Assembly: GCA_030998015.1 (NCBI GenBank)
Contig: JARWMV010000034.1
Location: 95,905-159,904, forward strand
Length of the DNA: 64,000 bases
Direction of reading: 5' to 3'
Origin: Ceratorhiza oryzae-sativae
Taxonomy: Eukaryota > Basidiomycota > Agaricomycetes > Cantharellales > Ceratobasidiaceae
In this document: positions 149-36,159 of the stretch, piece after piece
How positions within the stretch are numbered: the first letter of the stretch is position 1
How the letters are laid out: every line of letters begins with the position of its first letter
The notes under the pieces: generated by a model
Told to the model about the DNA's origin: nothing
Seen by the model: only the letters and a program-made list of their open reading frames with translations
Database searches by the model: none
Position numbers and translations under genes: made by a program

Positions 149-3100
149 TTGATTCAACCGGCAAACCTGCGCTTCTTACCAAGGTATGTGAATTCAAATC
201 CCGAGTCATGGAATTTAACCTCATTATCTTACAAGACGACGACCGCCCCACTGGAAGATGTGACCTACTTGAAAGGAATCGGCCAAGAAGCACAGGTTTG
301 GACAACCTACGTTAAAGAGACTAAAGAATTCGATGACGACATGGTTGAAGGCTGGAATAGGTACATTCCCATGCTAACGTGTGAACAACAAATAGCTGAA
401 GTCTCGCGAATTTTATTTATAGAAATCTAGATGTTACACTTGGTGAGCAATCGTGGTTAAAGCAGGATTACGTACTGTCTAATCACGATTGGGTTGGCTA
501 TCTCCTTGATAGTATTTGTACGTTTCTTGAATTTCACTAGGCTTGCTTTCGCGCTTAAAATCCGCATAGGCCGCCCTTTTCTCTGCCATATTAACGGCGT
601 AAGCCTCACACTGAAGTGTCTCATGAGCGGATGAACTAACATGACCGGTTGAAAGCTTCGTCCTTGAAAGTGCCAAAAAGCTGGAGCCTGATCCGGCCTC
701 CCAAACCGTGGATATATTACTAGAAATATCCCGAGCGCTTCAGGTGAATGGAGGGGCTGTACAACCCATCGTCAATCAAACCAACCCCCAGGGACAGTCT
801 CCATTTCGCCCATCAACTAGTACCGTATGGATCAACTGCCTCTGGTTTCTTTCTCTCAGCCTTAGCATAGCCGTATCGTTGGCCGCAATGCTTGCCAAGC
901 AATGGTGTTATTACTACGTCTCATTTCGAAGCGGTGATACCATCACTCAAGCGGAAGATCGCCAAAAGAGATATGACGGGCTAGCTAGATGGAGAATGCG
1001 GGGGATACTGGAGCATTTGCCGATGCTCATGCATATTTCTTTAGGTCTGTCATTTTGAAATTGCGAAGCATTTTTTACGGAACGCTCATGACGATTTGGG
1101 ATAGCACTCTTCTCGGTCGGTTTAATTCTATATCTATGGAACATAAATGTCGCCATCGCCAGTACTGTCTCGGCCGTCACGATCAGTGCTCTTTTCTGCT
1201 ACCTCGTGACAGTTCTATTACCGGTTTGGGATTCGTTCTGCCCATTTAAAACCACCCAGGCTGTCTACGCAAGGGTCTTCTTGAAGAACATGATTCGCCG
1301 GTTGCCAAAATTTCAACCCCTTTTGGTCCCAGTCTCCAGTGCTTCACTTCATTCCGCCATAGGGTATATGGTTGGTTGGTTTACGGAGCAACATGTACGA
1401 CAACCTAACCCTATTCGACCTGACGGGCCAAGAAATGAACCCCGCCCGGCACCTCCCAATACAGAGGGCGACAGCCATGTTATATATATCCCTAGCGTGC
1501 TATCGGATAATCACAGCTCTACCGCATCTTCGTCGTCTACTTCAGATGACGAAACCAAACCCTTTGTTAAAGGCGCCCTCGAATGGCTTATCCTATATTC
1601 GCAAAAATCAAGTTCTATTGACACTGCCATAGCGGCTATAGCAATTGGAAAAGTTCCTGTCGAGAACAAAGAGCTCAAACACCACATATACCTTCATCTT
1701 GTGAAGCATTTTTGCGATTGTTTCACTCCGAAGCAAGAAGGTTTCAGCCTTCACCTCTCACGTCGCAATAATGCTTTGGGTATGGCACTAGATTACATCA
1801 ATTGGATGTCTTGCCTCTCCAACAGTAACCACGAACTTATCAAGCGCCAGCTCTTGGAACTCAAAGAAGCCCTTGAGCCCGAGTTGGTAACACGTTTCGG
1901 GCTTTCGCTTGCCAGGTGAGTTGCTTGGCCCCCCCTGCGAGGACAAGCCCTGATAAGATGCCAAAACTATATTATCAGCCTAGCCCAGAACAGGACCCTC
2001 CCACAAGATGCTGGCAAGCACGTAAGTGAATTATGAAGATTTCAAGAGAGTGACCCCTTATATGCGTTGAAATAATTCAGATTGCATATTGGCTCTCTGC
2101 ATTCGTGATCTGCTACGATGAATCAGGCCTATATTTCCATCCAGACGTTCTCTCATTGTTGGTTCAGGGCCTCGCCATCACTGGACGTTGTGTCCACAAT
2201 GCCAAATCGGCATCAAAGAGAGCAGTAAAACTCGCTATCCCTCAACTAATTAGCATTCTTTGGAAGGTCTCTCACTTGGAGGAATCAGAACTACGGTCCT
2301 CAATAGGATTGAATCTTTCCGTATTTGCATTGACGACAGGTCTTCCTTATCCTATACAAAAGCACAATTTTAAATCAACCGCCGATTTTCTAGCATACGA
2401 TTACCGACCTACTGTTCTCAAAGAGAGAACTTTTGCTCCGTTTGGTATCTTTGCCCTCTTGGGTATCTTGCTTCCCGAAAGCAGGGTTGACCTTGGTGAT
2501 GAAAAAACTGAAATTGCGACTCGAATAATCCACGAAACAAAGTACTTGGAGCAGCCCAATCTATCCTTGGATATACCGAAACTTGTTGGCCAATATTCTT
2601 TTCGCCGGCATATGTCATCTATGGTGATTGAGAACATGGTCCAGTCCTCTGTTGCTCCACTCAATCCGCGGCGGTATCTTCTGTATATGGTATACAAAAA
2701 CCAGGATGTTGCACGTCGGCAGGAACAAAGCGCATTCCCGGTGAGGAATGATATTTATTGAAAATTTCGCTCCGCATTGACGTTTTGATGAAATCGACAA
2801 ACTCTTGTACTCAGACCTTGATCCATGCACTGCACCATCTCGTCGAGCAGCACTTGGATAAAACAGCCGTTTTGCATGAAGATATCATTGTTGCTGCGAC
2901 AGATTTGCTACATAGAGAGGTGCAAAAGCTTCAACGACTTGATTCATCGCTCATAGGGTTTGAGACCGCTCCTGAAGTACAGACAGGTAAGCTGACTCCA
3001 AACCGCACACAGCAAATACTCATTTGCGCATATTCGGGTCACACGCATCACCCGCATCTCAGCCTCGCTTACCCCTGGGTCTCAACCAGACGCTAGAGAT

Positions 3101-4462
3101 GATAACCCTTCCCATAGGGAGATTGAAAATTTGGCAACTCAGACCTTGGCAAGAATCTTGGAAAGGTCCAATAACAAGCAGTGTCTTGAGGCTGCTGTTC
3201 GTGCCGTAATATTCCACACCGGAAGCTGTGACGTTGGCTTAGTGTTAAAGGCGATAGCCTGGTTCGTCAAATCGTTTGGCGGAGCTCAATACGAGCAAGA
3301 CGTGATAACTGAAGATCAAATGCTTCATATGTGCGGCTATATTCGCATACTGATCTCAATGGCTGTGCATTGTCCCGACCCCAGCGGCCTTGCCGAGTCA
3401 CTTTACGCGCCCGGGCGAACGGATTATGATGCAATAATGTGCGAGATGATTCAAGCGAACATTCACACGTGAGCGTCTTCATACAAATGCCGATCCGTTA
3501 ATAACAACCCTTGAAAATCTAGCCTAGAAACTCGATCCCGCGATCCACACGTCAAAACATTCGGGATCGTTTGTTCATCCGTCTGGAAGTTCACGATCAC
3601 CAACCAAACTTTCAGCCAGCAGGACACATATTCCACATTTAGCAAGATATGGCACCTACTTATTTCACATGCCGAAGCCCTCCCGAAGGCCCAGTCTCAT
3701 GACGGCATTCAGCTTGATCATATGATCCGACCCGAAGTTGTTGAAGCGCTCGTTGATGCGACTGTGCTTGTCGCGTCATCGACGGAGGCAAAGTACAGTG
3801 TCTCGCACGTTGAGACCCAAGCGTTACTCAGTTTACTTGGGTATTTCGGTGACAACCCGAGTGCAGTAACCATTCGGCTCGCGCTGGCTGTGGCTATAGC
3901 GTTTTGGAGCCTTTCACTTGAAACCGGTGATTGGGAATTCGAGTTCTGGTCATTATTAGGACACCGGAAAGAATGGTGCAGGCATTACTTGAAAAATCAC
4001 TCACGTAGCAGCGATGCAGCGGCTTTGCTACTGCTAGGTCTCTCTAGGATTTTATCCTACTATGAACAACTCCGTCTCAGCTCGACCAGTATCAAGACTA
4101 TAGCGTCCGAGATTCACTGTATAATGAAGCAGCACGAAAAACAGCGCGAGCCCCTAACACTAGGCTTCTTGAATGGCTACGATGTTCGAAGGCAAGTTCG
4201 GGAGTCGGTTTGGCGGTACCTTCGAGAAACGGAATCAGAGGAACCAATTTCCAAGTCAACGTCCATGTCACGAGATACACTACGAGCAGCCCTACAGTGC
4301 GAGGGAGGAGAAGGGTTCGTTCACGAGCAGCCGCAGCCATTTAGACGAATATCCAGGGGGGTATCCTTTTCAAGTGGACCGGTGTATAATTCCGATGGGA
4401 CGCAGGCAGCTGATACCCTGCAACTACCCGGCAGAATTTCTGTAGAAGTATCATGTACATAG
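149..4462 (+). CDS. DUF6535 multi-pass membrane protein, copy A
   Basis: Multi-exon gene of unknown function. The N-terminal part (149-430) carries the motif LKGIGQEAQVWTTY, which has a counterpart in copy B. The recognisable DUF6535 core lies at about 700-1250: WINCLWFLSLSLSIAVSLAA followed by MLAKQWCYYY, RSGDT, then after an intron ending near 1104 a second hydrophobic stretch LFSVGLILYLW and PVWDSFCPFKTTQ. The remainder (to the stop at 4460-4462) is a long helical tail with conserved blocks LAIPQLISILWKVSH, NNKQCLEAAVRA and RPEVVEALVDA, each mirrored in copy B. Exons can be joined through introns near 1047-1104, 1918-2090, 2742-2817 and 3472-3527 without frame breaks, so it appears intact. 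The true start may lie at or before the window edge. The family is expanded in Rhizoctonia-type fungi and its biochemical role is unknown to me. Confidence 0.75.
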
Positions 4463-7015: not shown

Positions 7016-10000
7016 GACGATGTGGAATTCCTGAAAGGTATCGGTCGGGAGGCAGTCGTTTGGACAACCTATGTTCAGGAGTCCATGACATTCGATAGCG
7101 AGATGGTTGACGGGTGGAATAAGTACGAGGTCCAACTCGTATCATCGCTTAGTAACTCATGAAACTTGATATATTTTCATTCGCAGGAATTTGGATGTTA
7201 TTCTACGTGAGTCCATAATCAGTTCCCATTGATCGCTCGGAGCTAATTTTGCGTTTGAAAGTTTTTGTGCGTATATGTTCTCAGCAAAAAAGCCAGACTC
7301 CGACTAGCGCCCACTAATACCCTACTGTCTGACTAAGCCTTTTAGCGCCCATTAGGTTCTGGTAGCGCCGGTAGCCCGTGCCACCCGTGATCTAGTGGGC
7401 GCTAAAAAGCTTAGTTCGACGTGTGGGGCTGCTTCGCGCTAGTTGGGCTTTCGGCTTTTTGGCTGGGTTATCCACGTTGGTACGAGGCTTATTCATTGTC
7501 CAGGCCGCTCTTTTTTCCGCTATTTTGACTGCGTACGTTCCAAAATGCTGGGCGAACGCAAGCAGCTAGAGCTCATTATTTTCACTAGGTTCGTACTAGA
7601 AAGTACAAAAGCGCTCGGGCCCGACCGATCAATGCAAACGGTAGCACTCCTTCTGGAAATATCCCAAGCCATTCGGTCGAATCGAACTCAAGAGCCCGGA
7701 TATACTCCACTTGTGACCCAAAAGGATCTAAATGCCCCTCCTACGAATCGGATTGTATGGGTAAATTGTCTGTGGTTTCTTTCTCTGAGCATCAGTGTCT
7801 CTGTGACTCTCGCTGCGATGCTTGCAAAACAGTGGTGCTATTATTTCCTTTCTTCTCGAAGTGGAGACACCATTGCTCAAGCCGAGGAGCGGCAGAGGCG
7901 TTTCAACGGACTAGCAAAATGGAGGATGAGGGGGATACTTGAACAGTTACCGATGCTTATGCACACTGCGCTTGGTAAGTTATCGCACCTGAGATAGCTT
8001 GCTAAACGCTCATTGCTAGACGAAACTAGCTTTGTTCTCAGTAGGGTTGATACTATACCTTTGGGACATTCACACCGCAGTTGCCATTACGGTTTCGGTA
8101 GTAACTGTCACGACCTTGTGTTTCTACCTGGCGACTACTTTTGTACCGGTCTGGGACCAATCCTGTCCCTATAAGACTACTCAGTCGGTATACACCGCGC
8201 TAATCATACGTCCGCTCATCCTCCGTCATATATGGCCGCATCTCCAGAAATTTCGCAGCTTATACCGTCGCTGGAAATATTTCATCGCTCATCCATCACA
8301 GCCTGAGTCAGAGGGGCCTGCGTTCTTCCAGCCAGTTCGAGAAATGGCCTCGCGGACTTTGGTCTTGTGCAACGCGATCATGGGCCAAACGGAGCATACC
8401 AGCACCACGGTTCGGAACGCCTCCGAAGTGCCTGCCGAGCCCACACATACCACTCTAGATGTAGCAGACCCACCATTAGCCAGAATACCTGCAGCTGATT
8501 CGGACGCAAGCTCATTTGTTTCGGTCGTATCAATGGAGACCACTGAGCCGTTTGTGAAAGATGCTCTTGAGTGGCTCATACGCAATTCTCAGGTCTCTCG
8601 CACTATTGATACTGCTATTGGGGCGTTAGCGATTGGACATGTGCGGATCGATAACGAGAGCCTCAAGAAGAAGATCGATTTGCATTTAATGAAACATTTC
8701 ACTGATTGCTTCGTGCAAGGTAGAGATGGAGTCAGACTGGAGATGTCAAATTATCCAAACGCACTCAAATCAGCGATGGACTACATCAACTGGATGACCC
8801 AATTTGCAGGAGGAAAACCGAGGGATATTAGACATCAGGTTCAACAGTTGAATGGCATTTTTGAGGCGGATCTGATAACTTCATTCGGCCTTTCGCTGGC
8901 AAGGTATAGATATTTATGTTGCTGGTTCGAGGTGTTTGAATTGACCCGTTGCGATTTTATTCCTAAGCTTGAGTCAGCAGGCCCTTTCCAATGAAGCTGG
9001 TCAAAATGTCAGCATTTTCCTAGCCACACACAGTCTGAATCTCATAAATTCATCTAGGTTGCATTTTGGTTGGCGTCATTCATTCGCTGTTACGACCAAG
9101 GCAACAACAAGATATATTTAAGCGAGGAAGTGCTTTCAGTGCTTGTGGATGGTCTATCAACTGCTGGTCGCTACGTTCGCGTCAATGAGTCCCATGACTC
9201 ACTGGTCCCGGATGTACAAACAAAAGCTTCAGTTCTGGCTATTCCTGAACTTATAAACATACTCTGGAGGGTTTCGCATATAGGGGGCTCGACCTTACGG
9301 CTATCGCTTGCTGTCAATCTTATTGCATTCGCACTTACTTCGAACCTTCCGTATCCCCAACTAGATCGGTCGAAGATGGAGCAAGCGGCCCAGATGTTGG
9401 TGCATGAATATCGTGGCGTTCGGGATAGAAGCCCTGTTTATGTGTCATTCGTCGTTTTCGCTCTTCTCGGTTTCATACACCCGAAGACCAAACTAGGGCT
9501 CGACATTAACACGTTCGATACTAGTTGTAAAATAATCCACGAGACGAACTACCTGGCCCGTCCAAGTCTGGCAATGGGGATTCCCCATCTCACGGAGCTG
9601 GAATCAATGCGACGCTTGCTAACTCCCATGATGATTGAAAGCCTAGTACGCACTCCGAGAAGAGTCAAGCTTCCGCTCTACTACCTCCTCCAGAGTGTGT
9701 TCAAATCGGAAGCTTCAATCTACAAATGGAATCAGCAGAGTTTCCGAGTTAGTAGGTTTCTTTTGATCCTGCTTTCCAAGCTGACCAATATACCCTGATT
9801 TGGGCAGTCTCTTACCCCGGCACTCCACTATATGATCATCAATCATCTGAGTGGAGAATCAATCCTGCACGACGATGCAATAATAGCAGTTACGGACCTG
9901 TTATATAGGGAGGTGGTAAAACTCGAGACTCTCGACTCAAAAGTTCTTGGATTTGAAGTTAACAGTAAGGGTACAATTCGTAAGTCAATGCCCCAAGATA

Positions 10001-11314
10001 GATGCGATTGAGTAACAAATAACCCATCTGGGGCGACCCAAAATAGCCGCCGCCCATAGGCTGAGTAGGCACTCAGATTCCGATACCAACACCACATCAC
10101 CCGAGTACATGGCGACTATAGCTCTCGTTAGCATCATGCAAAGGTCGACCCATAAGCAATGTCTGGAAACAGCTGTACGAGCATTTCTACACCATACAAA
10201 CAGGAACGAAGGGGATAGCATCTCAGTTGTTAGGGCAGCTGTTTGGCTTTCGGAGTTTTTCCAATCTTTGAACGGGGCAGACCGCGGTATTGGCGCAGAT
10301 CAGCTACTCCACATCTGTGGCTACGTTAGGATCCTAACATCAATGATATTGCATTGTAAGGATCCGAGCGGCCTCGCCCAAAAACTTTCAACCCAGGCGT
10401 TCGAGGATCACCAGATAACCTTGAAGAAGGTCATTGAAGATATGATACAACGGTTAGTCCGATTGAAAATTATTGTTGTATCTCTAATTCACAAGCGGTA
10501 CTCCTTTAATGCAAATAGTTTAATGAAAGCTGAAGACACGCACGTACGGGCATTCGGTATGGCAGGCAAAGTTGCATGGGACTTTGCTTGCTCAAACCGA
10601 AGATACAACACTAGCGAGACGCAAGAAATGTTCGACCAATCATGGGAAATGCTCAGGAAACGCCGTCAATATAATTTGCGCCCAGAAGCTCTGGAGGCTC
10701 TGGTTGATGCAATTTCTCTACTGGGAGTCATGACAGATCCTACGCCTCCTCTGTCTGGAGTTCAAGTCCAAATGCTACTTCAGATCCTCGACCGTTTTCA
10801 ATCCGAAGCTCGTCAGCAGCTCAGGTCAGCTTTAGCTGTCTCAGCCACTTTATGGGGTGTCTCCCTAGACGAGTGGGAGTTCTGGACCCCAGAAATGCGC
10901 TACCAGTTATGGTCCAGCCACACTCGACTGGAAGAACGAATGAAGAACGTACCTGCTTTGTTCCTGCTAGGTCTTTCAAGAATATTGACGAATTACTTCA
11001 AGCTGAAACTTGACCATGCAAGCATCAAGACAATTGCATTGGAGATCGATCGGTATATGCGGCAGTGTGCTACCTCACGCAGCGTATTAACCCTATCCTT
11101 TCTACCCGAGTTCGACGTTCGAAGACACGTTCGGGAGTGCGTGTGGGAATATCTCCAAAATACAAACACCCATGGCCCCTTCACGAAATCGGCAGCGGCG
11201 TCACGAGATAAACTTAGGCTAGCTGTGCAGTACGATGGGGGGGAGGGATTTGTGTATGAGGATCCACATCCGTTTAGCAGGCGAGAGAGGGGTGCATCTT
11301 TCTTGAACGGTTGA
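7016..11314 (+). CDS. DUF6535 multi-pass membrane protein, copy B
   Basis: Tandem paralogue of the upstream gene, same strand and same domain order. It begins with FLKGIGREAVVWTTY at about 7030-7075, then short exons encoding NLDVIL. The core at 7640-8200 reads IVWVNCLWFLSLSISVSVTL, MLAKQWCYYF, RSGDTIAQAEERQ, then LFSVGLILYLW and PVWDQSCPYKTTQ. The tail continues through 8530-8910 (PFVKDALEWLIRNSQ), 9070-9770 and 10109-11314, with the stop in ggttga. An exon at 6545-6751 (LNKNVPPPKAEDTDQE, VTRYRLTY) could be its N-terminus; this is uncertain. Between the LDVIL exon (near 7200) and AALFSAILTAYV (near 7510) lies about 250 bp of foreign-looking DNA with a strong hairpin, so the first transmembrane segment may be disrupted or spliced around. 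Confidence 0.7.
7331..7417. repeat. Hairpin insert with 25-nt inverted arms
   Basis: The arm at 7331-7355 (gactaagccttttagcgccc...) is the near-perfect reverse complement of 7392-7417 (ctagtgggcgctaaaaagct...), with a loop of about 36 nt. A further tagcgcccact copy precedes it near 7309. It sits inside the expected DUF6535 N-terminal region of copy B, so it is probably the end of, or all of, a small non-autonomous element. Confidence 0.6.
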
Positions 11315-12940
11315 CTAATAAGCCAGGCGAAGTTTAAACCAATCACGGGTGCCCCATGATTACAATGTACACGAATTAAATTAAGATCAAATCCTACGAA
11401 ATTTCCCCACTATATGAATTGATGAATAAATGTTTCCCGGAAAGCCCCTATAGAGGATTACGGGTGTCCAGAGGTCAGGGGATGAGTTGTTCCCCGTCTA
11501 ATAAAAACTGCTCATGCTACTGGTCCCTAATAGGTTTGTTTCTTTAATTAAAGTGGGATGTAAAATAAGTGGACCTGGTCTAATTAGTCTGGCGTTTGCG
11601 ACTGTGAGAGTCTCTATCCCAGGGCCAGCAAAGTTGTCCGAAACGCCCAGAGTATGACCGTGGGTACCACCGGACAAGGTACCGCAAGCACGGCACTTTT
11701 TTTTTTAGCCCTTTTCATTAAATTCAGTGTATTACATACAGAATTGAGAGGCTTGGGAGGGGGGGGGGGGATCGGCAAGCAAGGGCAAGATACCAAGGCT
11801 CGATTGTGTACGCACTGGGTGGCGGACTGTTGGAGCCAAACGTATATTATAATGGGTATTGTAGAATACAAACATGAATATATCGAATGTACCAGCATAC
11901 TCTGGCAATCGCATGGCTCGTGTAGTGGGACTCGCGTACTTACTGTAACGTTCTACGGCGTACTAGAGTTAGGGCTCTGGAACGAAGTTGCGCCAGAAGT
12001 GAGTCACCTAGTAAATACCAACCTCATTTCACGGGAAACAATCAAACATCAGCAATATACTTCAACGCTGCATCCCCACCAGCCCGCCTGGTCTGCAGAG
12101 CAGTGGCCAGCACTCCCAGACGAAGCAATGCCATGCTTCCGAAGTTTTTTAAACGCTCTCGGTAAAAAGGTCGGAATTGTTGGATGGGATCATGCGCTTC
12201 CGATATTGCAGCGCATATAACCAGGGTTTATCTGCACTTCGAAGTTGTTAGTACATTTGTCCGCAATGTATGTATATAGGCGATTGTGCATTCGGAACCC
12301 TCGTTATTAAACGCTACTAATAAACCAAACCTGAACCGAGGATCTTGACCCCCACAAATTGATCTACGATACAAGAACCCTAGCCCGTCCTGATTTTTCC
12401 GGGATTTTGTGAATTTGATCTGCAACATGCGTTGTGAACAGAAAGACTTATCGGGGGGGGGGGGGGAATCCCGTCGCTTCGCTAACTAGGGGTGAGCCTG
12501 TATTTTCCATGTGTACAATGCTATCTAGCGTGCCTTCGCCCAGTACTATGTAGGCAAACACACATACCATTAACGACCTCCCAACCGTCGATAAGCTACA
12601 GCTTGACAGAAGTAAGGACCACTCCTACAAGGCTGCATACCCAAGCATTTGCGTTCGGGCTCCTCAGAGTCCGAAGCGGCACACTCAATCACGTTGATGT
12701 CAAACCGCACAAGTAGCAAAGACCTCGGGGAACGGTAATTTGTATGACGTTGCAATCGCCAAATAGAATCAATCGGCGTTAGTAGGTCAGCCATGGTCAG
12801 GGTCCCACCCGATCCTGGGCGAATCTCGCGGCATACCGTATGATACATATGACGAGCGTGAAATCGTAAACGGAGCACTGTGTCGACATCATGCTAGGGC
12901 TGCCGATCAGGCTCGCGGACATATAAAGTCACGATAGAAC
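11315..12940. other. Gene-poor stretch with homopolymer G tracts
   Basis: No supported gene. Long G runs occur near 11758-11770 and 12453-12467, and a T run near 11699. Open frames here overlap on both strands and show no family motifs. Confidence 0.45.
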
Positions 12941-16303: not shown

Positions 16304-17233
16304 TGAAGTCTGCATCGTTTTTGGGAATGGAGGAGTCATAGGGAACCTAGAAAGGTGGGCCTTGAACCTGAGACAATTGTGTTGACCGCGTGCTCACGAT
16401 CGCAATCCCGCCGCCTACCAGTTCAGTTCGCCCTGACGTAGCTATCGGCTATTCTATGCATTATTTCTCATCATATCTATCGGACCGTAACACCAATTGA
16501 AGTCTTTCGTTCCCGCTTAACACTCTGGACAGTCTCTCGTTTCGTGAATAATTGTTGTGTGGCTGTTCCCCCTCTGATTCGTGGTTCTTGTCTCGTCCAC
16601 GCTAAAGTGTCAAATTATATTTACGTTGCCTATATTTCCAATCACTGAGGTTAATCGTTGGGATCTCCATGGACTGGGTGTTCCTTTAGGTGCAGTCCAC
16701 GCCCGCAGTAGATCGCAATAATCTAGTTTTCCAACCTCGGTCTGGGACGAGCAGGGCTCGCCACACCATGTATCAATACATTCGGCTGGACATATATAGT
16801 TTGATTGGAGAAGCGGCAGCCGCTGCACGGGCTGGCGGGCGTTCCCTTCGGTGCGGCAGATTCAGCCTTATTCCTGCCCACGGAGATTTCGCTCGACCCC
16901 GGAGGATAAGTGTCCTGATAAACTATGCTGTGCTCGATTATTTTTTCTTCATTTTTGCAGGGTCTCGAATTTCGAGCCGAACACTCTCAGTACATTCATA
17001 TCACCCATTCAATTCGTTCCAAGAGCCCGCTTTCCCAGGTCCTCCTGAAAGTTGGCACTCCGACTTCGAGCCTCTCTATGACATGATCTCCCATTTGTGA
17101 TATTTACCGTTAAAACTGTGCCGTTCTCCACCGGTTTTTGGTCTTCTCCCGCACCATTGTAAAGAAGGAGATTGCTAAATTTCACCCAGAGTGGCCATCA
17201 ACACACGACCATCAAGCGGTAAACGACATTGAC

Positions 17234-18916
17234 TCACGGGCTACCTTCTCCTACATCTTGCAGCTTATCCCTGATCGCCATGCTTTGAACACGCTCAAGA
17301 AGTTCGGCCGGGGTGAGATATTTCTTTTCGTATCCCAGGATTTCAGCCATAACACCCGTAACATGTGCCACCGCAATCGAAGTCCCACCATCTGTTGCTT
17401 GATTGGAAGGGCCCTTAATTCCAGCCGAGATAATAACATCTCCTGGTGCAAAAATCTTGATCGCAGGTCCGTAGTTTGAATCGGAACAACGTTTGTCGGT
17501 GATGTCGGTCCCGCCTACTACAACGACCCCGGGACACACAGCGGTGTGTTTTGACTCGCGTCTTCACCATCGTTGCCAGCGGACGCGCATACGGTGATGC
17601 CAGATGCAATCACTTTTCGTATTCCGGAATTGATGATTTCTTCAGAGTCGTCCCAGTTGCTGCTCAAATTCACGATGCTTGGTCTACCACTGGACTTGGT
17701 CTCCTTGAGGACAAAATTGAAACAAGCCTGCGTCCAGTCTGTTCGTCCATCATCGTTATCATCCCCATCCTTCAGAGCGATAACGTTGGCAGTCTTTGCG
17801 ATGCCGAATTGGCGTCCAACTATGACGGCTGCAATGTGCGTCCCATGACCACTCAAATCACTTGCTGTTGCGTTAGGAACGATATATCCCCATCTTGCTC
17901 TACCACAAACTCTTCGTGCTCGACATAGACCCCTGTGTCAATAACGTAGACATCAACAGGTGTCGGATCGCAGCACAATCTGCTGCGGTATGTATAGGAC
18001 AATTCTTTCGGATTGGAGCCCGGAGGTATCGGATGAAGAGTACTAATACGCTGGAGTCCCCATGGTGCGCCGGATCTGCCATGGAATCGATCAGGCACCC
18101 TCGGCGGCTATGACGTGAACCCACTTACTGCGCAATCACAGGAAAATCGATCGTGGTCGAGCTTTGACCCCGCTGCGTTTTGCTTTGCGGCGACGGTTTT
18201 GACGAATGGAATCAACCTCTGGCCTACGCGCGACAGCTTGTAGCGCTCCGCCCGATAGCTTTGCGGAATATCCATTAAGAGCTACAGAAAATTTAGCCAA
18301 TGGTGAAGCCGACATGATGTGGAACCTGCCATCGAATTCCATTTCAATTTCACATAATCCCGAGTGGCTGCTCGGCACACTTTTCACCCAATCCAGGTGA
18401 ACCTTTTGATCGCTCGAGTCTTTTAAGGTCACCTTTGGAGCACAATAAATAAATAAACCCTTATAAAGTGAATGCCGCAGGGGGGTGGTTCCTACGTACC
18501 ACGTAAGAGTCCGGAACGCCATCTTTCTTTGCCATGATAATTTCGACTGTAGCTGGCCTGGCGATTGCCTCGGGCGCTGGCGTATGATCACTATGTAATG
18601 TCAAGTCTTGCAAACCCTGGCTGATTTCTTGATCACCCGTTGCCCTCTCCTCAGTCGGCGAATGTAAGCTAACGGTATCGCTATCAATCAGAATGGGGTT
18701 ATTGTTCAAGCCACTGGCACGTCGTTTGCCGAATCGGCTTTCAAACGGCCATGTTAACACATTGAGAATTCGTTTGCGCAGGCGTTTCCCGCGACTGGAT
18801 TTATGCGTGCTCGCTGGTGATGGGGGGCGATGGTCGATTGTTCCAAGCCTGTTGATGCCATCAGGCACGGATGCATAGTATTGAGTGCGCTGAACAGAGT
18901 AAACCATACTGGCCAT
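17234..18916 (-). CDS. Intracellular-type I9-S8 subtilisin-like protease
   Basis: Starts at 18916 (MASMVYSVQRTQYYA), with a basic, signal-less N-terminal region of about 115 residues. The inhibitor-I9 propeptide then begins as VEIIMAKKDGVPDSYV, is split by an intron, and resumes VTLKDSSDQKVHLDWVKS and LNGYSAKLSGGALQ, ending RRPEVDSI. The S8 domain shows all three catalytic residues: Asp in DVYVIDTGVYVEHEEF (codon near 17937-17939), His in SGHGTHIAA (17845-17847) and Ser in GGTSIAVAHVTG (17378-17380). The usual AAPHVAG is altered to AVAHVTG. The oxyanion-type ASAGND is present. The frame changes once after DGEDAS (near 17555), and the Asp-to-His exon junction is unclear, so it may be decaying. 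With no signal peptide, cytosolic action is inferred. It is homologous to the protease half of the 31.8-35.5 kb locus. Confidence 0.7.
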
Positions 18917-20960
18917 TGTGTGCGATACAAATAGTAGAAAGGGTTAACTGCGACAAATGGATTTATGTATGCGAGCTTCAGGTGATAGGGGACAGAGTGT
19001 AGTCAATCGATAAGCTTGGAGAACTGATGCTTTATCCAATGTGCCACCTTGTTTGCATACATGTGGCGGCGAACAGCCACGGCTTAAAACGGCAGCCAGC
19101 GATGGTCCAACTCGTGTTGCACACCCCTTTTTCCATACGAGTTGCATTTGGTTAGAATACAAATTCATGAAATTGGTTTTAGGTCCTTGAAGTCAATCAA
19201 CCGTGGGCCACCTGGGTTAAGTAGGCGAGGCAGTCCTGAGCAATGTGTTCAATCAAGCCCCCAGAATGGCTTTCTAGCCTTGGTCCCGACTGGGGACATG
19301 TCTTCGCCACGAAACTACATTTTGGTCACATGTGTAGCCAACTTGAGATATAATTTGAATTAGTTGTGATGGTTACTCTCTCATACTACGCGGGATCCTT
19401 GTCTTGGCACCCTGACCACACTCGCTCGCATATGCCTTTATACTTTCATCCATAAATTCTGGTGGAGGCCTTTCAGAAAATCTCGTGTGTTGCTTGAGAT
19501 GATAACCTCCACGATGGCGAGGAAACTTACGACAAACCTTGGAGTAGCCCTAAAGTTTTATCGACCATCCTAGATAGGAAATTTCTTTTAGTCCGTCCAG
19601 GCGAACGAGTATACTAACATGTGAGTGGACTCCTAGCAATCAAGTTCGTCGAGTGTCAATATCGTGAAATTTCGTGGGCAATAACCTCATGTTTATGATT
19701 CGCGGAGATGACGGGCATAGTGCGGTGGTATAGATTTCAGACTCGCGCACAGTAGCGTTACTAGTACGCTCCCAGGCTGCCAGCCGTATCACCTTTTTCT
19801 GACTTTGTGTTCTGAAAGAATTGAGCCATATTTCGTATTGAATACCTCTCTGTCACCGATCGCATATCTAAGAATATCTGGAGGGATTAGCTATAGTCAT
19901 ACCCGGAGTCCTGGAACGTCATAGGGCAGTCAATAATCAAATTTATAAACTGTGGTCATTATCAGTGCTTCGACATTCTCAAAGCGTTTTTGGGAGACAG
20001 AAATGGGAGGCTGTAGACTTTTCGCGTAAGATCCTACAGCATATATGCACAAAAAAAGTCACCCATCAACAGATCCTTGGGGCATCCTACACACTCACAA
20101 TAGGTTGGATGCCTTTATTTTCAAAGGCAACAACGAGCTCTAGACAAACCCCTTGCATCAAGCCTAGTTGAAAGACCCTGCAAGCCGGTCACCTTGGTCT
20201 ATGCAGCGCTCTGCATGCTTGTTTTGCGGACTCCAGTCCGTGAAGGCCCCCATGTTCGCCTTTAACGATCCCACGTTTTAGCGAGTAGTAGGTATCTTGG
20301 CCTATCACCTGTTGGCAACGAATGGTGTTGGTGGAATCGAACGTGCAGCGGCATGGGTTGTAAAAGCAGTGCGAGTAGCGAAAGCCTTCACGCTACTGAA
20401 GGTGTTTGTTGTCCGTACCTCGTGTACAACTTGGCTTCCGGGTTGGCCGTGTGTTCGGAGGCGCTGAGAAATGCTGCGCTGAAGATCAGGCACTACTACC
20501 ACCAGGTTTTAGATGTGATCTTCCTGTGTTTCAAATCCGCCTGAGTGCAGTCACCCTCACGAGGCAAGGATCGCCTCGCGCGCTAACAGCCCGGAACCTT
20601 TTTAGCAAACGAATTGAGATCGCCGGCATCTCGCCCTCTTCTCTCGTGGACCACAACAACGGATATTGTTCACTAGGAAGAGCTAGAGAACGGTAAGACG
20701 CTTCCGGCATGGCCATTGTCGAGAACTGGACATCATTGCCTGTCCAGAGCAAGTACCAGCAGCAGAGTATAATGAGATATATCATTGAAATGCGTGCACA
20801 AGTCTCGTTAATACATAACAAAGCATTGCTCGTAAGAACAGAATGGTAATAAGGAAAATGGCCAAAAAAAAAAAGAAAAAAGACAATCAGATCGAGAGAG
20901 AGAGAGAAAATGAAACAATATGAAAGCAACATCAAGTCGTGTAGCAATAACCCAAATCAC
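18917..20960. other. Intergenic stretch
   Basis: No supported gene. An A-rich tract and a (GA)n run are present at about 20865-20907, just downstream of the stop of the Ser-rich gene. Confidence 0.4.
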
Positions 20961-31782: not shown

Positions 31783-34276
31783 ATGTCACAATCCCAGTCG
31801 GCCTCTGTGCAACAGAGGGGGGATCAATCTCTCATGACATCGCCAACAGGTGGTAATCCGAGCGAGCCATTATCACTGAGTGAACAATGTGCTTTGCCTC
31901 TTGCAACAGTTGCGGCCGAGTTGGCACCTATTCCTTACATCGGCGATGTGGTTAAGGATTTGATTAGCATTTTTGTGATCATCGGAAGGGCCCGAGTGAA
32001 TAGGTTGGCGTCTACCATATTTGGAGAGATATTATAACTTAAATGTTTCACAGAGAGCAATGGAGACTACTACAAGGACGATGCGTGATGGTTGCGCGAA
32101 TCGCTGGCTCGGAAGTTGCCAACGGCGGCGGAACACATTACCCCAAGCTCGCAGAGGCGGCGGAACATCTCAAGCGGTATTTTCCATCTCCCAGGACTAA
32201 GACCCCGAATTTACCTCTTTATATAGTACTATTGCAAACATTGGTCAACGCGCAGACCAGTGGAACAAAATGAACGTGTTTGTCGAATTTCTGCAGTTCA
32301 AGAATATCAGCGAGGAAATCAAGAATCATTTTGCTGAACTTGACGCTTGCATGTCGTACTTCTCGGTTAGCCATCAACATACGATCATTTGATGCTCAGA
32401 TTGCTGACTCAAACTCAGCAAAGCGTCTCGGTGTCCCAAGAACAGTGGGTTCCGGATTTTAACGTAGTGCAACAGCGGGAATTGGCCCAGCTCGAACTTT
32501 TCTTGAATCTCCTACGAGAGCAAATGCATATCGAATTTGAGCCAGTGAAAAAGAACCTGGAGACGATCGAGAAAAGGACGAGCGAAATCTATCGTCTTCT
32601 GGAGCAGGTCGTCCAGCAGAAGCACAACGTATGTTACTCGTGTTTCATTTGCGAGTTTTACAGGTCAACATAATCCCTTGTCTAGATATTTAAAGACCCC
32701 GAAAATAAGACGGTGGCTGAGTATGCTGACGCTGAGGAAGTACTACAAGTAATTCGAATCGTCGCGGGCATTCAACTCCCTGCCAGTCTCCTGGTTGGGC
32801 GTCAATGTGTTCTCGAAAGTCCCTTGCCAATTCGGACAGGCGTAACCTGCGACGTGTACCAAGCGCGATTTCTGACTGAAAGGGTTGCCAAGAAAGTGTT
32901 CCGTATCGGAACGTCTGACAAAGATGCGGTATCCCGTTATGCTGAGGCAAGCACACGAAGCTATATCTGACGGAAATCTTTTACTGATTGAAGGATAGAA
33001 ATTTGTAAGGGATGCTAGCTTGTGGGCGACGTTCAAGTCCGAGTACACCCTACCACTCTACGGGATCGGGATGGAAACCGCAGGCGTTGACAAGGACGCC
33101 TGGCAGCTGTAAGTACATCCCACGAAATGCATCGTGACGGCTTAATAACGATGCGGACAGTTACATGGTGTCTCCGTTGATGAAAAACTACGATGCTGTG
33201 GGTCCATTTTGAGAAGGGAATGTAGATTGATTATGACTATCCTGCCCGCAGGTCACATATTTGAAAAAGTACAGGAATAACCCAAATATGCGGGAAGGGA
33301 TCATGCGTATCGTAAGCCGTGATAACACCAGTCCTAATTACTGTAGCTCAACACATCACTTTAGATCACGGACGCGGCAGAGGGGTTGAAATATTTACAC
33401 AACCGAAACCCTCCTGTGGTTCACTCTGGGATGCGAGGGGACAACATCCTGATTACAGACAGCGGTGGGGGAATCCTTGGAGGATTTGGATTAACAAGGG
33501 TATGTGGGGTTGATGATTCAAAACTCGAGCCGCCTGCCTTATCTGTATGAATTCAAGGTACTCGCCACTGGGGATGCTCCGCCGACTGTGATGACGGGTA
33601 GGACCGATAGCTATCGGTGGATGGTAAGGCATTTTTATTGGGTGTTTGGGAAAGAGTAGTGACTAGTTGGTAGGCTCCCGAAATGTTATCTGTGGATCAG
33701 CCACCCCTCCAAACACACTGTGATATATGGGGATGGGCAATGGCAGCGCTCGAGGTAATATATCTACCCACTCTACTCAACATGATTCAACAGTTGTATT
33801 AAAGCGATCATTAGCTCACCAGTGGTATTGTCCCCTTTCACGAGATTAGACAACCCTGGGCGATTATGAGCAAAATCACCTCGAACATACGTCCGATACG
33901 CCGCGACTATCCGGATTTCGAGCGCTGTGCGCTTAATCCTGACCGCTTGTGGTCGCTCTTGGAACGTTGCTGGGTGACAAAGCCCGAAGATCGGCCGACT
34001 ATTGACGAGGTAGTCCTGGAGTTACATCGCATACAGTCTCCCCTTGAAGAGCGTTTGATCGTATCACAATATTCGAATACGCAAGTCGAGAACCTAGCAA
34101 CGAAAGACACAATGGAAGTGGATGTAGACACCGAAGCCGAACTGACCAAATCTGAAAAATGGGCTTCAAAGTATCCGCATGTGGAGTTTGACTTGGCGGA
34201 AGATAGTGACGAAGATGTAGTTCCCAATTCGTATATGTGCGCTCCGTTTCGTTTCGCGGTACTCAATTTAGTCTAA
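31783..34276 (+). CDS. MLKL-like N-terminal domain plus TKL pseudokinase (5' part of a kinase-protease fusion)
   Basis: Starts MSQSQSASVQQRGDQ. The N-terminal helical region reads ELAPIPYIGDVVKDLISIF, then across a 50-nt intron (32004-32053) REQWRLLQGRCVMVARIAG, DQWNKMNVFVEFLQFKNISE and NHFAELDACMSYFS. This layout resembles the four-helix MLKL/HeLo-like domains fused to TKL kinases in Agaricomycetes. A coiled linker follows (LELFLNLLREQMHIEF). Kinase features: VAKK lysine at 32893-32895; catalytic loop VVHSGMRGDNIL, where the HRD aspartate is G (33428-33430); DFG replaced by GFG (33482-33490); then YRWMAPEML, HCDIWGWAMAALE and the C-lobe CWVTKPEDRPTIDEVV. It should be catalytically inactive. 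The last exon (from about 33813) runs past the kinase without a stop into the first strand of an I9 propeptide (DVVPNSY), so the protein probably continues into the protease below. Confidence 0.7.
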
Positions 34277-34279
34277 TCA

Positions 34280-35466
34280 GGGCACAAAAAGATCACTCTC
34301 AAGATTAACACTGATATGGCAAATCACATAAAGTGGGTGAAAGGGTTGTATGACGAGGATACAGATTCAGAGGTTCTATGCGCGATCGAACGCGAATACG
34401 AAAGTAAGTTATCACAAATCTCCGCTAAGAACTGACTGATTAATACAACAACAGTCATCAAAGGGTACTCGGCTCAGCTCGACGAAAAATCACTATGTCG
34501 CCTTGTCGAATCCCAGATATTGAGAGTGTTACCTCGAACACCTTGGGACAGCCAGCGTTTCGAGATGACGTTCCTCCTGGGGTAAATATTAGAAGCAACG
34601 TTCCGTGGGGCCTTCAGTGCATCAGCTCCAGGTAGCTGTTATCCTGCTTCAGCTGCTGAAGGTTACATATTTCGTCAAAACTTAGCCGACAGGGAGCCGA
34701 CGCCGGTCGACGTATACGTTATGGATTCCGGAGTTTACGTGGCCATGAGGAGTTTGGTGGCCGTGCAAGCCTCGGAAAGGATTTTACAGGAAACCGGACG
34801 ACGTAACAGGGCACGGTACTCAAGTTGCTGGCATTATTGCTGGGGCTCGTATTGGTGTTTGTGCCGATGCCTATATCCATGCTGTCAAGGTCATCGGCAC
34901 TGGCGGCGCCAAGGTGGATGACTGCATCAAGGCATTCGAATGGGTTCAGGACCAGGCTAATGCCTCGCAGCGAGCTAGCATTATCAACTACAGTATTGTC
35001 CATCGTGGTGTTCGGGTACTCGATAAAGTCGTCCGGAACGTGATAGCTGGACAGAGGACTAGAGGAAGTGAAGTTGAACGGTGCGGTCCGGTGTTCGTAT
35101 GTGCTGCTGCTGGAAACGCCAAAGAAGGCAAACAAGCAGAGAACGCGGTCAAGTACAGCCCTGGGAGGGTTCCTGAAGTTGTGACTGTTGCTGCTTCGGA
35201 TGTCAACAATCGTTTCTGTGCGTTCTCGCATTGGGGTCCGGCCGTTACGATAGTCGCCCCAGGCGAAATATCCTCTCTGCGAGTATCGAGGGCTCTTTGC
35301 ATTGGCCCCATGCAATGGTACTTCGTTTGCGGCTCCCCATGTTACTGGGGTGGCGGCATGCATTCTCAGCTTCGAAAATCTTACTCCGGCTGAGCTGTCT
35401 CAACGACTTGTTACGATGGCTACTAATGGGGTATTAGAGGGAATTCCAACACAGGACACACCGTAG
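34280..35466 (+). pseudogene. I9-S8 subtilase, frameshifted 3' part of the kinase-protease locus
   Basis: After a 50-nt GT-AG intron ending at about 34279 comes I9 sequence KKITLKINTDMANHIKWVK, AIEREYE, a second intron, then IKGYSAQLDEKSLCRLVES. The S8 domain follows: DVYVMDSGVYV (Asp codon 34724-34726), HEEFGGRASLGKDFTGN, GHGTQVAG (His codon 34812-34814; the second His of HGTH is Q), INYSIV, VFVCAAAGNAKEG, VTVAASDVNNRFCAFSHWG, ILSASIEGS and CNGTSFAAPHVTG (Ser codon 35323-35325). It ends LSQRLVTMATNGVLEG at the stop 35464-35466. All catalytic residues survive, but at least five single-base frame changes separate the blocks (near 34290, 34735, 34800, 35270 and 35300). Either a recent pseudogene or a low-quality consensus. 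Confidence 0.7.
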
Positions 35467-36159
35467 GTTCCAATCTCGAATTCTTACTTGGTTAGGCGCT
35501 GAAGATGGTCATCTGATATCCAGTAATCTTTTGCTCCATAACGGGGCACCAGCTTGAGAGCTTGTCGATGGCGGACACAATTATAACAAGGGATGAGGGT
35601 CCCAAAATTTGGCGAGTGAAAGAAACGCGAAAGGAGGGACAGGATCAAGTATGTAAATAACAAGGCTACTTCCGATATGGACCAATAAAAATTAATAACG
35701 AGCAGTTGTTGTTCGGGCCTGGGCGACATGCTGTGTGATATGGCTACGGCAGGGTATACCACGTTTTAGGGTAATAAGAAGTTGATTTGGGATAGCGCGG
35801 TTCCAGCCAGCTAGTTAAAGCCATGATGCGGCCATCATGGCCGATGCGAAGCTCGTATGTAACGATTACCTAGCTGCCTCGGATAATATCTCCGTTTAAG
35901 CGCACACGCGAGCGGGCGCCGAGGGATCGACGTCAGACGTAGCGGCGCCAATGTGTGTTATGGACGATGAGCACACCCACAGACGTCGCGTTGAAGCGTG
36001 ATGGGCAGTCTCCACACGCACTGCCAGATTTGAAATTCGGCCCCACAGCCGTGCCCGAGGTTGACTCGCCATTGACGCCGACGTGGGGATTGGCTCGCGT
36101 ATCTGGCGCACCAGAGATCCAGAAGCCAGTTGGCGGCAAGGCTATCCTCGGCCCCTCTG

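What the first reader, a model, noticed from the sequence alone, without database searches (positions are those of the whole stretch)
31783..35466. Candidate new fusion: MLKL-like domain, pseudokinase and I9-S8 protease in one locus
The exon that encodes the end of the kinase C-lobe (CWVTKPEDRPTIDEVV) stays open through a 55-60-residue linker into DVVPNSY, the first strand of an I9 propeptide. Subtilase sequence follows directly after a 50-nt intron. In the second subtilase of this window (17.2-18.9 kb) an intron sits at the same place (VPDSYV then VTLK; here VPNSY then KITLK). This ties the linker to the protease, not just to the kinase. A cell-death-type sensor with a dead kinase coupled in cis to a self-inhibited protease would be an unusual necroptosis/caspase-like architecture in fungi.
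Basis: partly seen in the sequence, partly recalled or inferred. Interest (0 to 1): 0.87.

Follow-up and report, generated by a model that had tools for sequence, protein, structure and literature searches.

The report
Fungal pseudokinase fused to self-inhibited protease
A fungal gene joins a necroptosis-like (MLKL-like) region and a dead kinase to a protease that carries its own inhibitor; relatives have the same joined gene intact, while here the protease part is out of frame in the assembly, so it may be a compact cell-death switch but its working state in this strain is unknown.

Summary
The fusion is real and old, not a mis-joining of two genes. An MLKL-like helical region and a pseudokinase (HRD reads HSG, DFG reads GGF) splice cleanly over 12 exons. 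The last exon runs without a stop through a linker that ends in a motif otherwise found at the start of an I9-S8 module. Ceratobasidium sp. AG-Ba (P0001, 984 aa, 46% identity, 98% coverage) and Rhizoctonia solani (P0010; P0037 cut short) have one annotated protein in the same order. On the kinase part alone the four fused genes form one clade (100/95), nested among unfused kinases; the protease tree agrees. The same linker-I9-S8 module sits behind a caspase-like domain (L053, own genome) and a CVNH domain (P0079). Yet its conserved residues are kept as well as in intact relatives, so the breaks are very recent or local assembly indels; undecided. Reviews mention kinase-S8 and HELL-kinase fusions; I did not find the triple order in print, but a key paper was not available. 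How it works is inferred.

The parts
31783..34276 (+). Spliced frame of 634 residues plus stop in 12 exons (31783-32003, 32054-32176, 32227-32365, 32419-32628, 32686-32946, 32999-33108, 33161-33197, 33252-33311, 33365-33499, 33558-33623, 33674-33754, 33815-34276); the stop at 34274-34276 is reached only if the intron after VVPNSY is not removed
   Evidence: no frame break in this part
31942..32356 (+). MLKL-like helical bundle (about residues 54-158), followed by brace-like helices to about residue 256; approximate
   Evidence: positions carried over by hand from the model of P0002 through the alignment; PF22215 in 4 of 8 relatives at E <= 10, not in this copy
32839..34021 (+). Pseudokinase domain, residues 283-550 (PF07714)
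   Evidence: E 1.3e-26
33422..33430 (+). HSG (residues 407-409) in place of the catalytic HRD
33479..33487 (+). GGF (residues 426-428) in place of DFG
34022..34234 (+). Linker in the last kinase exon; its end (34172-34234, YPHVEFDLAEDSDEDVVPNSY) is the conserved start of the I9-S8 module
34292..34550 (+). I9-like propeptide in two exons (34292-34403 and from 34455) around a 51-nt GT-AG intron
   Evidence: (E 0.02, below cut-off)
34551..35462 (+). S8 subtilase (proteinase K type) with Asp 34724-34726, His 34812-34814, Ser 35323-35325; six changes of reading frame in the assembly
35524..35557 (+). Last short exon (NLLLHNGAPA and stop), after a GT-AG intron
   Evidence: own reading, like the end of L053
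17230..18943 (-). Second subtilase with I9 and the homologous intron position, no kinase; two frame changes in the S8 part

Best explanation
Shown: a conserved gene fusion in Ceratobasidiaceae, most simply of single origin, that puts an MLKL-like helical region and a pseudokinase in front of a linker, an I9-like propeptide and a proteinase-K-type S8 protease. Inferred: it is an intracellular cell-death or allorecognition switch. The S8 domain is made as a zymogen held by I9. Autoprocessing just before the conserved PWGLQ would cut the chain into [bundle - pseudokinase - linker - I9] and [S8], so that the inhibitor stays part of the MLKL-like half and clamps the protease. A change in that half (ligand, oligomerisation, membrane contact) would loosen I9 and free S8, or S8 would cut the linker and free the bundle to attack membranes. 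Pseudokinase and bundle thus act as sensor and possible executioner, the protease as trigger or second executioner, in one chain. In this strain the protease frame is broken in the assembly; the MLKL-pseudokinase half is intact.
For: One-protein models in two other species. Fused kinases form one clade, 100/95, with the protease part cut off; the grouping holds with P0010 and P0037 left out (97) and at 90, below the star, with P0001 left out. The S8 tree groups window, P0001, P0010 and P0079 at 96/96. Linker motif in 3 of 58 database kinases, the three counted as fused. I9 and S8 of P0001 (593-980) align with a 384-residue proteinase K chain from residue 37 on (8rse), and mature proteinase K starts at P0001 ~680 (1ic6). 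H[SCA]G in 51 of 58 and GGF in 52 of 58 relatives by simple patterns. The model of P0002 has helices fitting bundle and brace, and a kinase (mean pLDDT 82). Asp, His and Ser motifs are present in P0001 and P0010.
Against: No transcript, protein or phenotype data. The S8 part of the P0001 model is poor (pLDDT mostly under 50), so how I9 sits on S8 in this chain is not shown. I9 is below the Pfam cut-off in the window (16 bits) and in P0001 (19.6) and not found in P0010. P0010 lacks the second half of I9 and P0037 ends before S8. The bundle has no PDB sequence match; the full-length MLKL match to the P0001 model has rmsd 18.3 and does not recur among the 50 rows shown for P0002. The long branches of P0001 and P0010 drew a warning. 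The window copy is frame-broken. The same module occurs behind CVNH and caspase-like domains, which fits a general trans-acting protease as well.
Confidence: 0.5

Rival explanations
1. The protease is the executioner in trans: the MLKL-like bundle and pseudokinase only sense and oligomerise, and the freed S8 cleaves another protein such as a gasdermin, as HET-Q2 does with HET-Q1.
For: [quoted passage not shown] PMC10197012, section 15). The same I9-S8 module sits behind unrelated N-termini: caspase-like (L053) and CVNH (P0079).
Against: None of the 20 window ORFs scanned (of 47 listed) has an annotated gasdermin or NLR domain; weak evidence, since fungal gasdermins may lack a Pfam model and exons were scanned singly.
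Confidence: 0.3
2. State of this copy, reading A: in this strain the protease part is a true pseudogene and the gene now makes a 634-residue MLKL-pseudokinase with a leftover linker.
For: Six frame changes plus a non-frame-keeping intron in ~1.1 kb, none in the 634 upstream residues. Two haplotig-like pairs of loci differ by 8 single-base gaps in 16,207 aligned columns (five longer gaps not counted), so the cluster is far above the usual rate.
Against: The window module keeps 87-93% of columns invariant in three intact relatives, like P0001 (93%) and P0010 (88%); its S8 end branch (0.38) is the shortest of the fused rows; the Asp, His and Ser are in place and each homologous segment, bounded by me at the frame changes, has a stop-free frame; five of six shifts go the same way.
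Confidence: 0.4
3. State of this copy, reading B: the shifts are local assembly errors and the gene is intact in the organism.
For: Conservation without decay, short branch; another subtilase of the genome, L061, also shows three same-way frame changes in conserved sequence (own reading).
Against: The upstream 12 exons are clean, and HSP70/TCP1 genes show about one abutting frame change by my rough reading of coordinates; a bad patch just over the protease would be a coincidence.
Confidence: 0.5
4. Two neighbouring genes were joined by eye; kinase and protease are separate.
For: I found no frame-keeping splice that joins them in this assembly.
Against: Linker motif inside the kinase exon, one-protein models in two other species, one clade of fused kinases and an agreeing S8 tree.
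Confidence: 0.04

Closest known systems
Tyrosine kinase family catalytic domain protein, Ceratobasidium sp. AG-Ba (P0001), and R. solani protein P0010
   Same: Same order of parts, same dead-kinase motifs, same linker
   Different: Protease frame unbroken; 46% and 44% identity; I9 of the P0010 model incomplete; the names given mention only the kinase
Basidiomycete MLKL-like (BaMLKL / MLKL_NTD) and HELL domains, some joined to kinase or pseudokinase domains
   Same: Helical region plus pseudokinase; an extra N-terminal helix and a short helix between helices 3 and 4 are described for BaMLKL (PMC9815663, passages), and helices in fitting places are seen in the P0002 model (own comparison)
   Different: No protease in those described in the passages read
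HET-Q2-like S8 proteases that cut fungal gasdermins, with WD40, ANK, TPR, NLR or kinase-like partners
   Same: S8 protease in a multidomain protein; kinase-like partners are mentioned (PMC12881547, passage)
   Different: No gasdermin gene was recognised here; I9 and an MLKL-like bundle in the same chain are not mentioned in the passages read
Animal MLKL
   Same: Four-helix bundle, brace and a kinase without HRD and DFG Asp (recalled); MLKL pseudokinase structures match both models (6o5z)
   Different: Animal MLKL has no protease and is switched on by RIPK3 phosphorylation (PMC12881547, passage)
Proteinase K-type subtilases (S8A with I9)
   Same: I9 and S8 of P0001 align with a proteinase K chain that includes the propeptide (8rse)
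   Different: The I9 N-terminus is joined to another protein

Membership tests
MLKL-like (4HB + pseudokinase) | N-terminal four-helix bundle with brace | tested here: inconclusive
   PF22215 in 4 of 8 relatives at E <= 10, best 2.6e-7, not in the window copy; profile of 8 against PDB finds no MLKL at E <= 1; models with fitting helices; 4btf at rank 14 over 515 columns but rmsd 18.3, not among the 50 rows shown for P0002; bundle not searched alone
MLKL-like (4HB + pseudokinase) | Kinase fold without catalytic HRD and DFG Asp | tested here: met
   HSG and GGF; PF07714 E 1.3e-26; common in the family
MLKL-like (4HB + pseudokinase) | Oligomerises and permeabilises membranes | not testable with these tools
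   needs protein
S8 subtilase | Asp/His/Ser triad in S8 sequence context | tested here: met
   Motifs present in the window pieces, P0001 and P0010
S8 subtilase | Continuous coding frame in this copy | tested here: not met
   may be assembly
I9 propeptide | Pfam PF05922 above cut-off, directly before S8 | tested here: inconclusive
   Position fits; 16 bits in the window, 19.6 in P0001, none in P0010, 22.7 in L053; cut-off 21.2
HET-Q2-like gasdermin-activating protease | Gasdermin gene nearby | tested here: inconclusive
   20 of 47 window ORFs against Pfam, none annotated so; fungal gasdermins may lack a model
NLR receptor | NACHT or NB-ARC domain | tested here: not met
   No Pfam match of that kind in P0001, P0010, P0037 or the spliced window frame
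Active TKL/tyrosine kinase | HRD and DFG Asp | tested here: not met

The most novel reading that the evidence does not exclude
A one-chain death switch: the protease's own inhibitor is welded to a necroptosis-type pseudokinase, so that normal zymogen cleavage leaves the MLKL-like half as a detachable clamp, and activation of that half both frees a protease and arms a membrane-attacking bundle. The linker-I9-S8 unit would be a plug-in trigger that Ceratobasidiaceae put behind an MLKL-pseudokinase, a caspase-like domain or a CVNH lectin domain.
Probability: 0.25. Interest if true: 0.85.

Novelty: new variant of a known kind. Interest (0 to 1): 0.6.

Why it matters
In animals the membrane executioner (MLKL, gasdermin) and the protease (caspase) are separate proteins. 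A conserved fungal protein with an MLKL-type region, a dead kinase and a self-inhibited protease in one chain would let one ask directly what a pseudokinase does for a protease, and would link the necroptosis-like and pyroptosis-like branches of fungal cell death. The shared linker-I9-S8 module behind caspase-like and CVNH domains gives a way to find further such switches.

Tried and rejected
Two separate genes: rejected because the linker motif is inside the kinase exon and relatives have single proteins. Frame-keeping splice at the kinase/I9 border: no plausible GT-AG pair found by eye; weak donors, such as a GT upstream that would remove the conserved VPNSY, or GC donors, were not pursued. 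Tiny introns as cause of the frame changes: the homologous segments abut with no room. Kinase paralogs of the own genome with the same protease behind them: seven of the 32 non-window matches were fetched with long flanks (L054, L055, L056, L057, L062, L063) and none shows an S8 match; the other 25 were not examined this way. L019 (match to 3-135 with stops), looked at as L057, gave a kinase match only. Linker-I9 query in the own genome: three weak matches at E 0.25-0.37, one of them the window. Caspase-I9-S8 relatives in the protein database: 33 hits, none with a listed S8 domain, but only 7993 candidates were scored. The search with the P0001 protease region missed P0010, so absence in such a search means little. 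MLKL by sequence profile in PDB: nothing at E <= 1. Deeper S8 relationships are unresolved (module clade 63/5). Print: the searches showed no description of the triple order in their listings; the main gasdermin-protease paper (PNAS 2022, recalled) is not held and was not read. Papers: PMC12881547 seen in passages and section 21; PMC10197012 in passages and section 15; PMC9815663 and PMC4986451 in passages; all others as search listings only.
Full report
What is there. The window lies on contig C34 (bases 95905-159904) of a 48.8-Mb genome in 253 contigs. From the ATG at 31783, 11 introns of 50-60 nt (10 GT-AG, one GC-AG at 32947-32998) join 12 exons into 634 residues and a stop without a frame problem. 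Residues 283-550 are a protein kinase domain (PF07714, E 1.3e-26) in which HRD reads HSG (407-409) and DFG reads GGF (426-428), so it should be catalytically dead by the usual motifs. The last exon, 33815-34276, runs from the kinase C-lobe through a linker to YPHVEFDLAEDSDEDVVPNSY and, if the next intron is not removed, to a stop 13 residues on. After it come an I9-like piece (E 0.02, below cut-off) and S8 pieces (E 4.5e-20 and 6e-10) with Asp, His and Ser in place, and a short last exon that ends at 35557.

The frame. Kinase exon and I9 exon use the same frame, so an intron between them must be a multiple of three; the 50-nt intron proposed is not. From about 34.55 to 35.31 kb the S8 homology changes frame six times in my segmentation, five of them in the same direction. 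The second subtilase of the window (17.2-18.9 kb, minus strand) changes frame twice.

Is the fusion real? A database search with the spliced frame (X at each break) returned 77 proteins at E <= 0.001 among the 7997 candidates scored. The best, P0001 of Ceratobasidium sp. AG-Ba, is one annotated protein of 984 aa, 46% identical over 98% of the query, with kinase and S8 above cut-off and I9 just below (19.6 bits against 21.2). P0010 of R. solani (917 aa) has kinase and S8 but only the first part of I9; P0037 of R. solani AG-3 has the same front part and a fuller I9, but its model stops before S8. Of P0001-P0058, the 58 hits with the MLKL-kinase family, three carry the linker motif, and these are the three counted as fused; 51 of 58 have H[SCA]G and 52 of 58 GGF in the simple patterns used, which were not tied to a position. 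So the dead kinase looks like a family trait. P0010 and P0037 are near-identical and count as one lineage.

Origin. With the protease part cut off, a tree of 54 of these 58 proteins (P0038, P0040, P0049 and P0050, chimeric or double-kinase models, left out) plus the window puts the four fused rows on one branch, 100/95, inside the unfused kinases. The program warned that P0001 and P0010 have long branches that meet. Without P0010 and P0037 the window still joins P0001 (97); without P0001 it joins P0010/P0037 at 90, below the star (eight of the 58 left out there). In a 20-row S8 tree the window, P0001, P0010 and P0079 form a group at 96/96. So both halves tell the same history, which two neighbours joined by eye would not be expected to give.

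A shuffled module. The pre-I9 motif is also found in L053 of the same genome: behind a caspase-like domain (PF00656, E 1.1e-15) comes an exon with SYPHVEFDLAKPGDKSAIEDCYI, then I9 (22.7 bits, above cut-off) and an unbroken S8 (E 1.6e-34). The Pfam caspase match ends just before that exon; the exon's first residues (QHPVCEGINRDRIIFDG) resemble a stretch found by a strict pattern in 2 of the 33 caspase hits (P0140, P0143), so exon and caspase part seem to belong together, though the start codon was not fixed. P0079 of R. solani AG-3 has CVNH (E 3e-20), then FDKIDFQL...CVPNSYIV and S8. The deeper tree of the module is unresolved (63/5).

Decay or assembly? For decay: the breaks are clustered over the protease, the 12 upstream exons are clean, two haplotig-like pairs differ by only 8 single-base gaps in 16,207 aligned columns (101 mismatches; five longer gaps not counted), and HSP70/TCP1 matches show about one abutting frame change by my rough reading of coordinates, with stops inside matches taken as introns. 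Against long decay: where three intact relatives agree, the window module agrees in 76 of 86, 78 of 90, 80 of 91 and 68 of 73 columns (87-93%), as P0001 (68 of 73) and P0010 (68 of 77) do, better than P0079 (68 of 87) and L053 (68 of 85), while the second subtilase keeps 70-75%. Its S8 end branch (0.38) is the shortest of the fused rows, and each homologous segment, as I bounded it, has a stop-free frame. L061, another subtilase, also has three same-way changes (own reading). I cannot decide between very recent inactivation and a local bad patch.

The MLKL-like part. The window copy has no Pfam match there to MLKL_N, and a profile of 8 sequences (window and 7 relatives) has no MLKL match in PDB sequences at E <= 1. 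But 4 of those 8 match MLKL_N at E <= 10, best 2.6e-7 (unrelated families such as GD_N also match weakly, 5 of 8, best 0.0065), and the database lists PF22215 for P0017, P0034 and P0048. AlphaFold of P0002, the nearest unfused relative, gives confident helices that fit bundle and brace, and a kinase (mean pLDDT 82), with an extra helix in front and a short helix between the third and fourth, features that PMC9815663 describes for basidiomycete MLKL-like domains (the match is my own reading). Foldseek with the P0001 model lists full-length MLKL (4btf, TM by target 0.48, 515 columns, rmsd 18.3, so the two domains do not superpose together) at rank 14 among kinases; for P0002 no full-length MLKL is among the 50 rows shown, only the MLKL pseudokinase (6o5z rank 2, 7jxu rank 26). 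The S8 part of the P0001 model is unreliable.

How it may work. P0001 residues 593-980 align with a proteinase K chain that includes its propeptide (8rse), and mature proteinase K begins at about residue 680 (1ic6). Ordinary zymogen cleavage there would leave I9 on the MLKL-like half. That this half then acts as a clamp, and that its activation frees the protease or the bundle, is inference. The rival, a sensor that releases a protease to cut another protein, fits known fungal systems (PMC12881547, PMC10197012).

Against what is known. A review mentions HELL domains with kinase or pseudokinase domains, and S8 or CHAT proteases with kinase-like domains. I found no text that describes all three together in the listings or in the passages read, but the key gasdermin paper could not be read. 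I rate it a new variant of a known kind.

Noticed in passing
L053:3491-6278 (own genome C48, about 40.99-43.78 kb): Unbroken caspase-like (C14) domain followed by the same linker, I9 and S8, with a hydrophobic C-terminal stretch that looks like a membrane anchor; none of 33 database hits of its front part lists an S8 domain. Start codon not fixed.
   Followed up: partly
P0079 (R. solani AG-3 Rhs1AP, 542 aa): CVNH lectin-type domain followed by the same linker and S8.
   Followed up: partly
window 17230-18943, minus strand: Second I9-S8 gene with a ~130-residue front part without Pfam match and two frame changes; its conserved columns are kept less well (70-75%) than in the fusion.
   Followed up: partly
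L061 (own genome C237:1227000-1233500, minus strand): Another subtilase with three same-way frame changes in conserved sequence (own reading).
   Followed up: no
L067:4496-4753 and its near-copy L068:4159-4416: I9-like stretch related to that of L053 (E 1e-11) without a matching S8 directly behind it.
   Followed up: no
L060 against L059: Near-identical subtilase copies (about 99%) of which one has a premature stop where the other has Trp.
   Followed up: no
P0038, P0049: Gene models that join an MLKL-like pseudokinase to a second, apparently active kinase, in either order; could be gene-model fusions or a RIPK-MLKL-like pairing in one chain.
   Followed up: no
window 645-4459 and 7443-12217, plus strand: Two similar-looking multi-exon genes in tandem; the five of their ORFs that were scanned have no Pfam match.
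   Followed up: no
window 32947-32998: GC-AG intron inside the kinase N-lobe.
   Followed up: no
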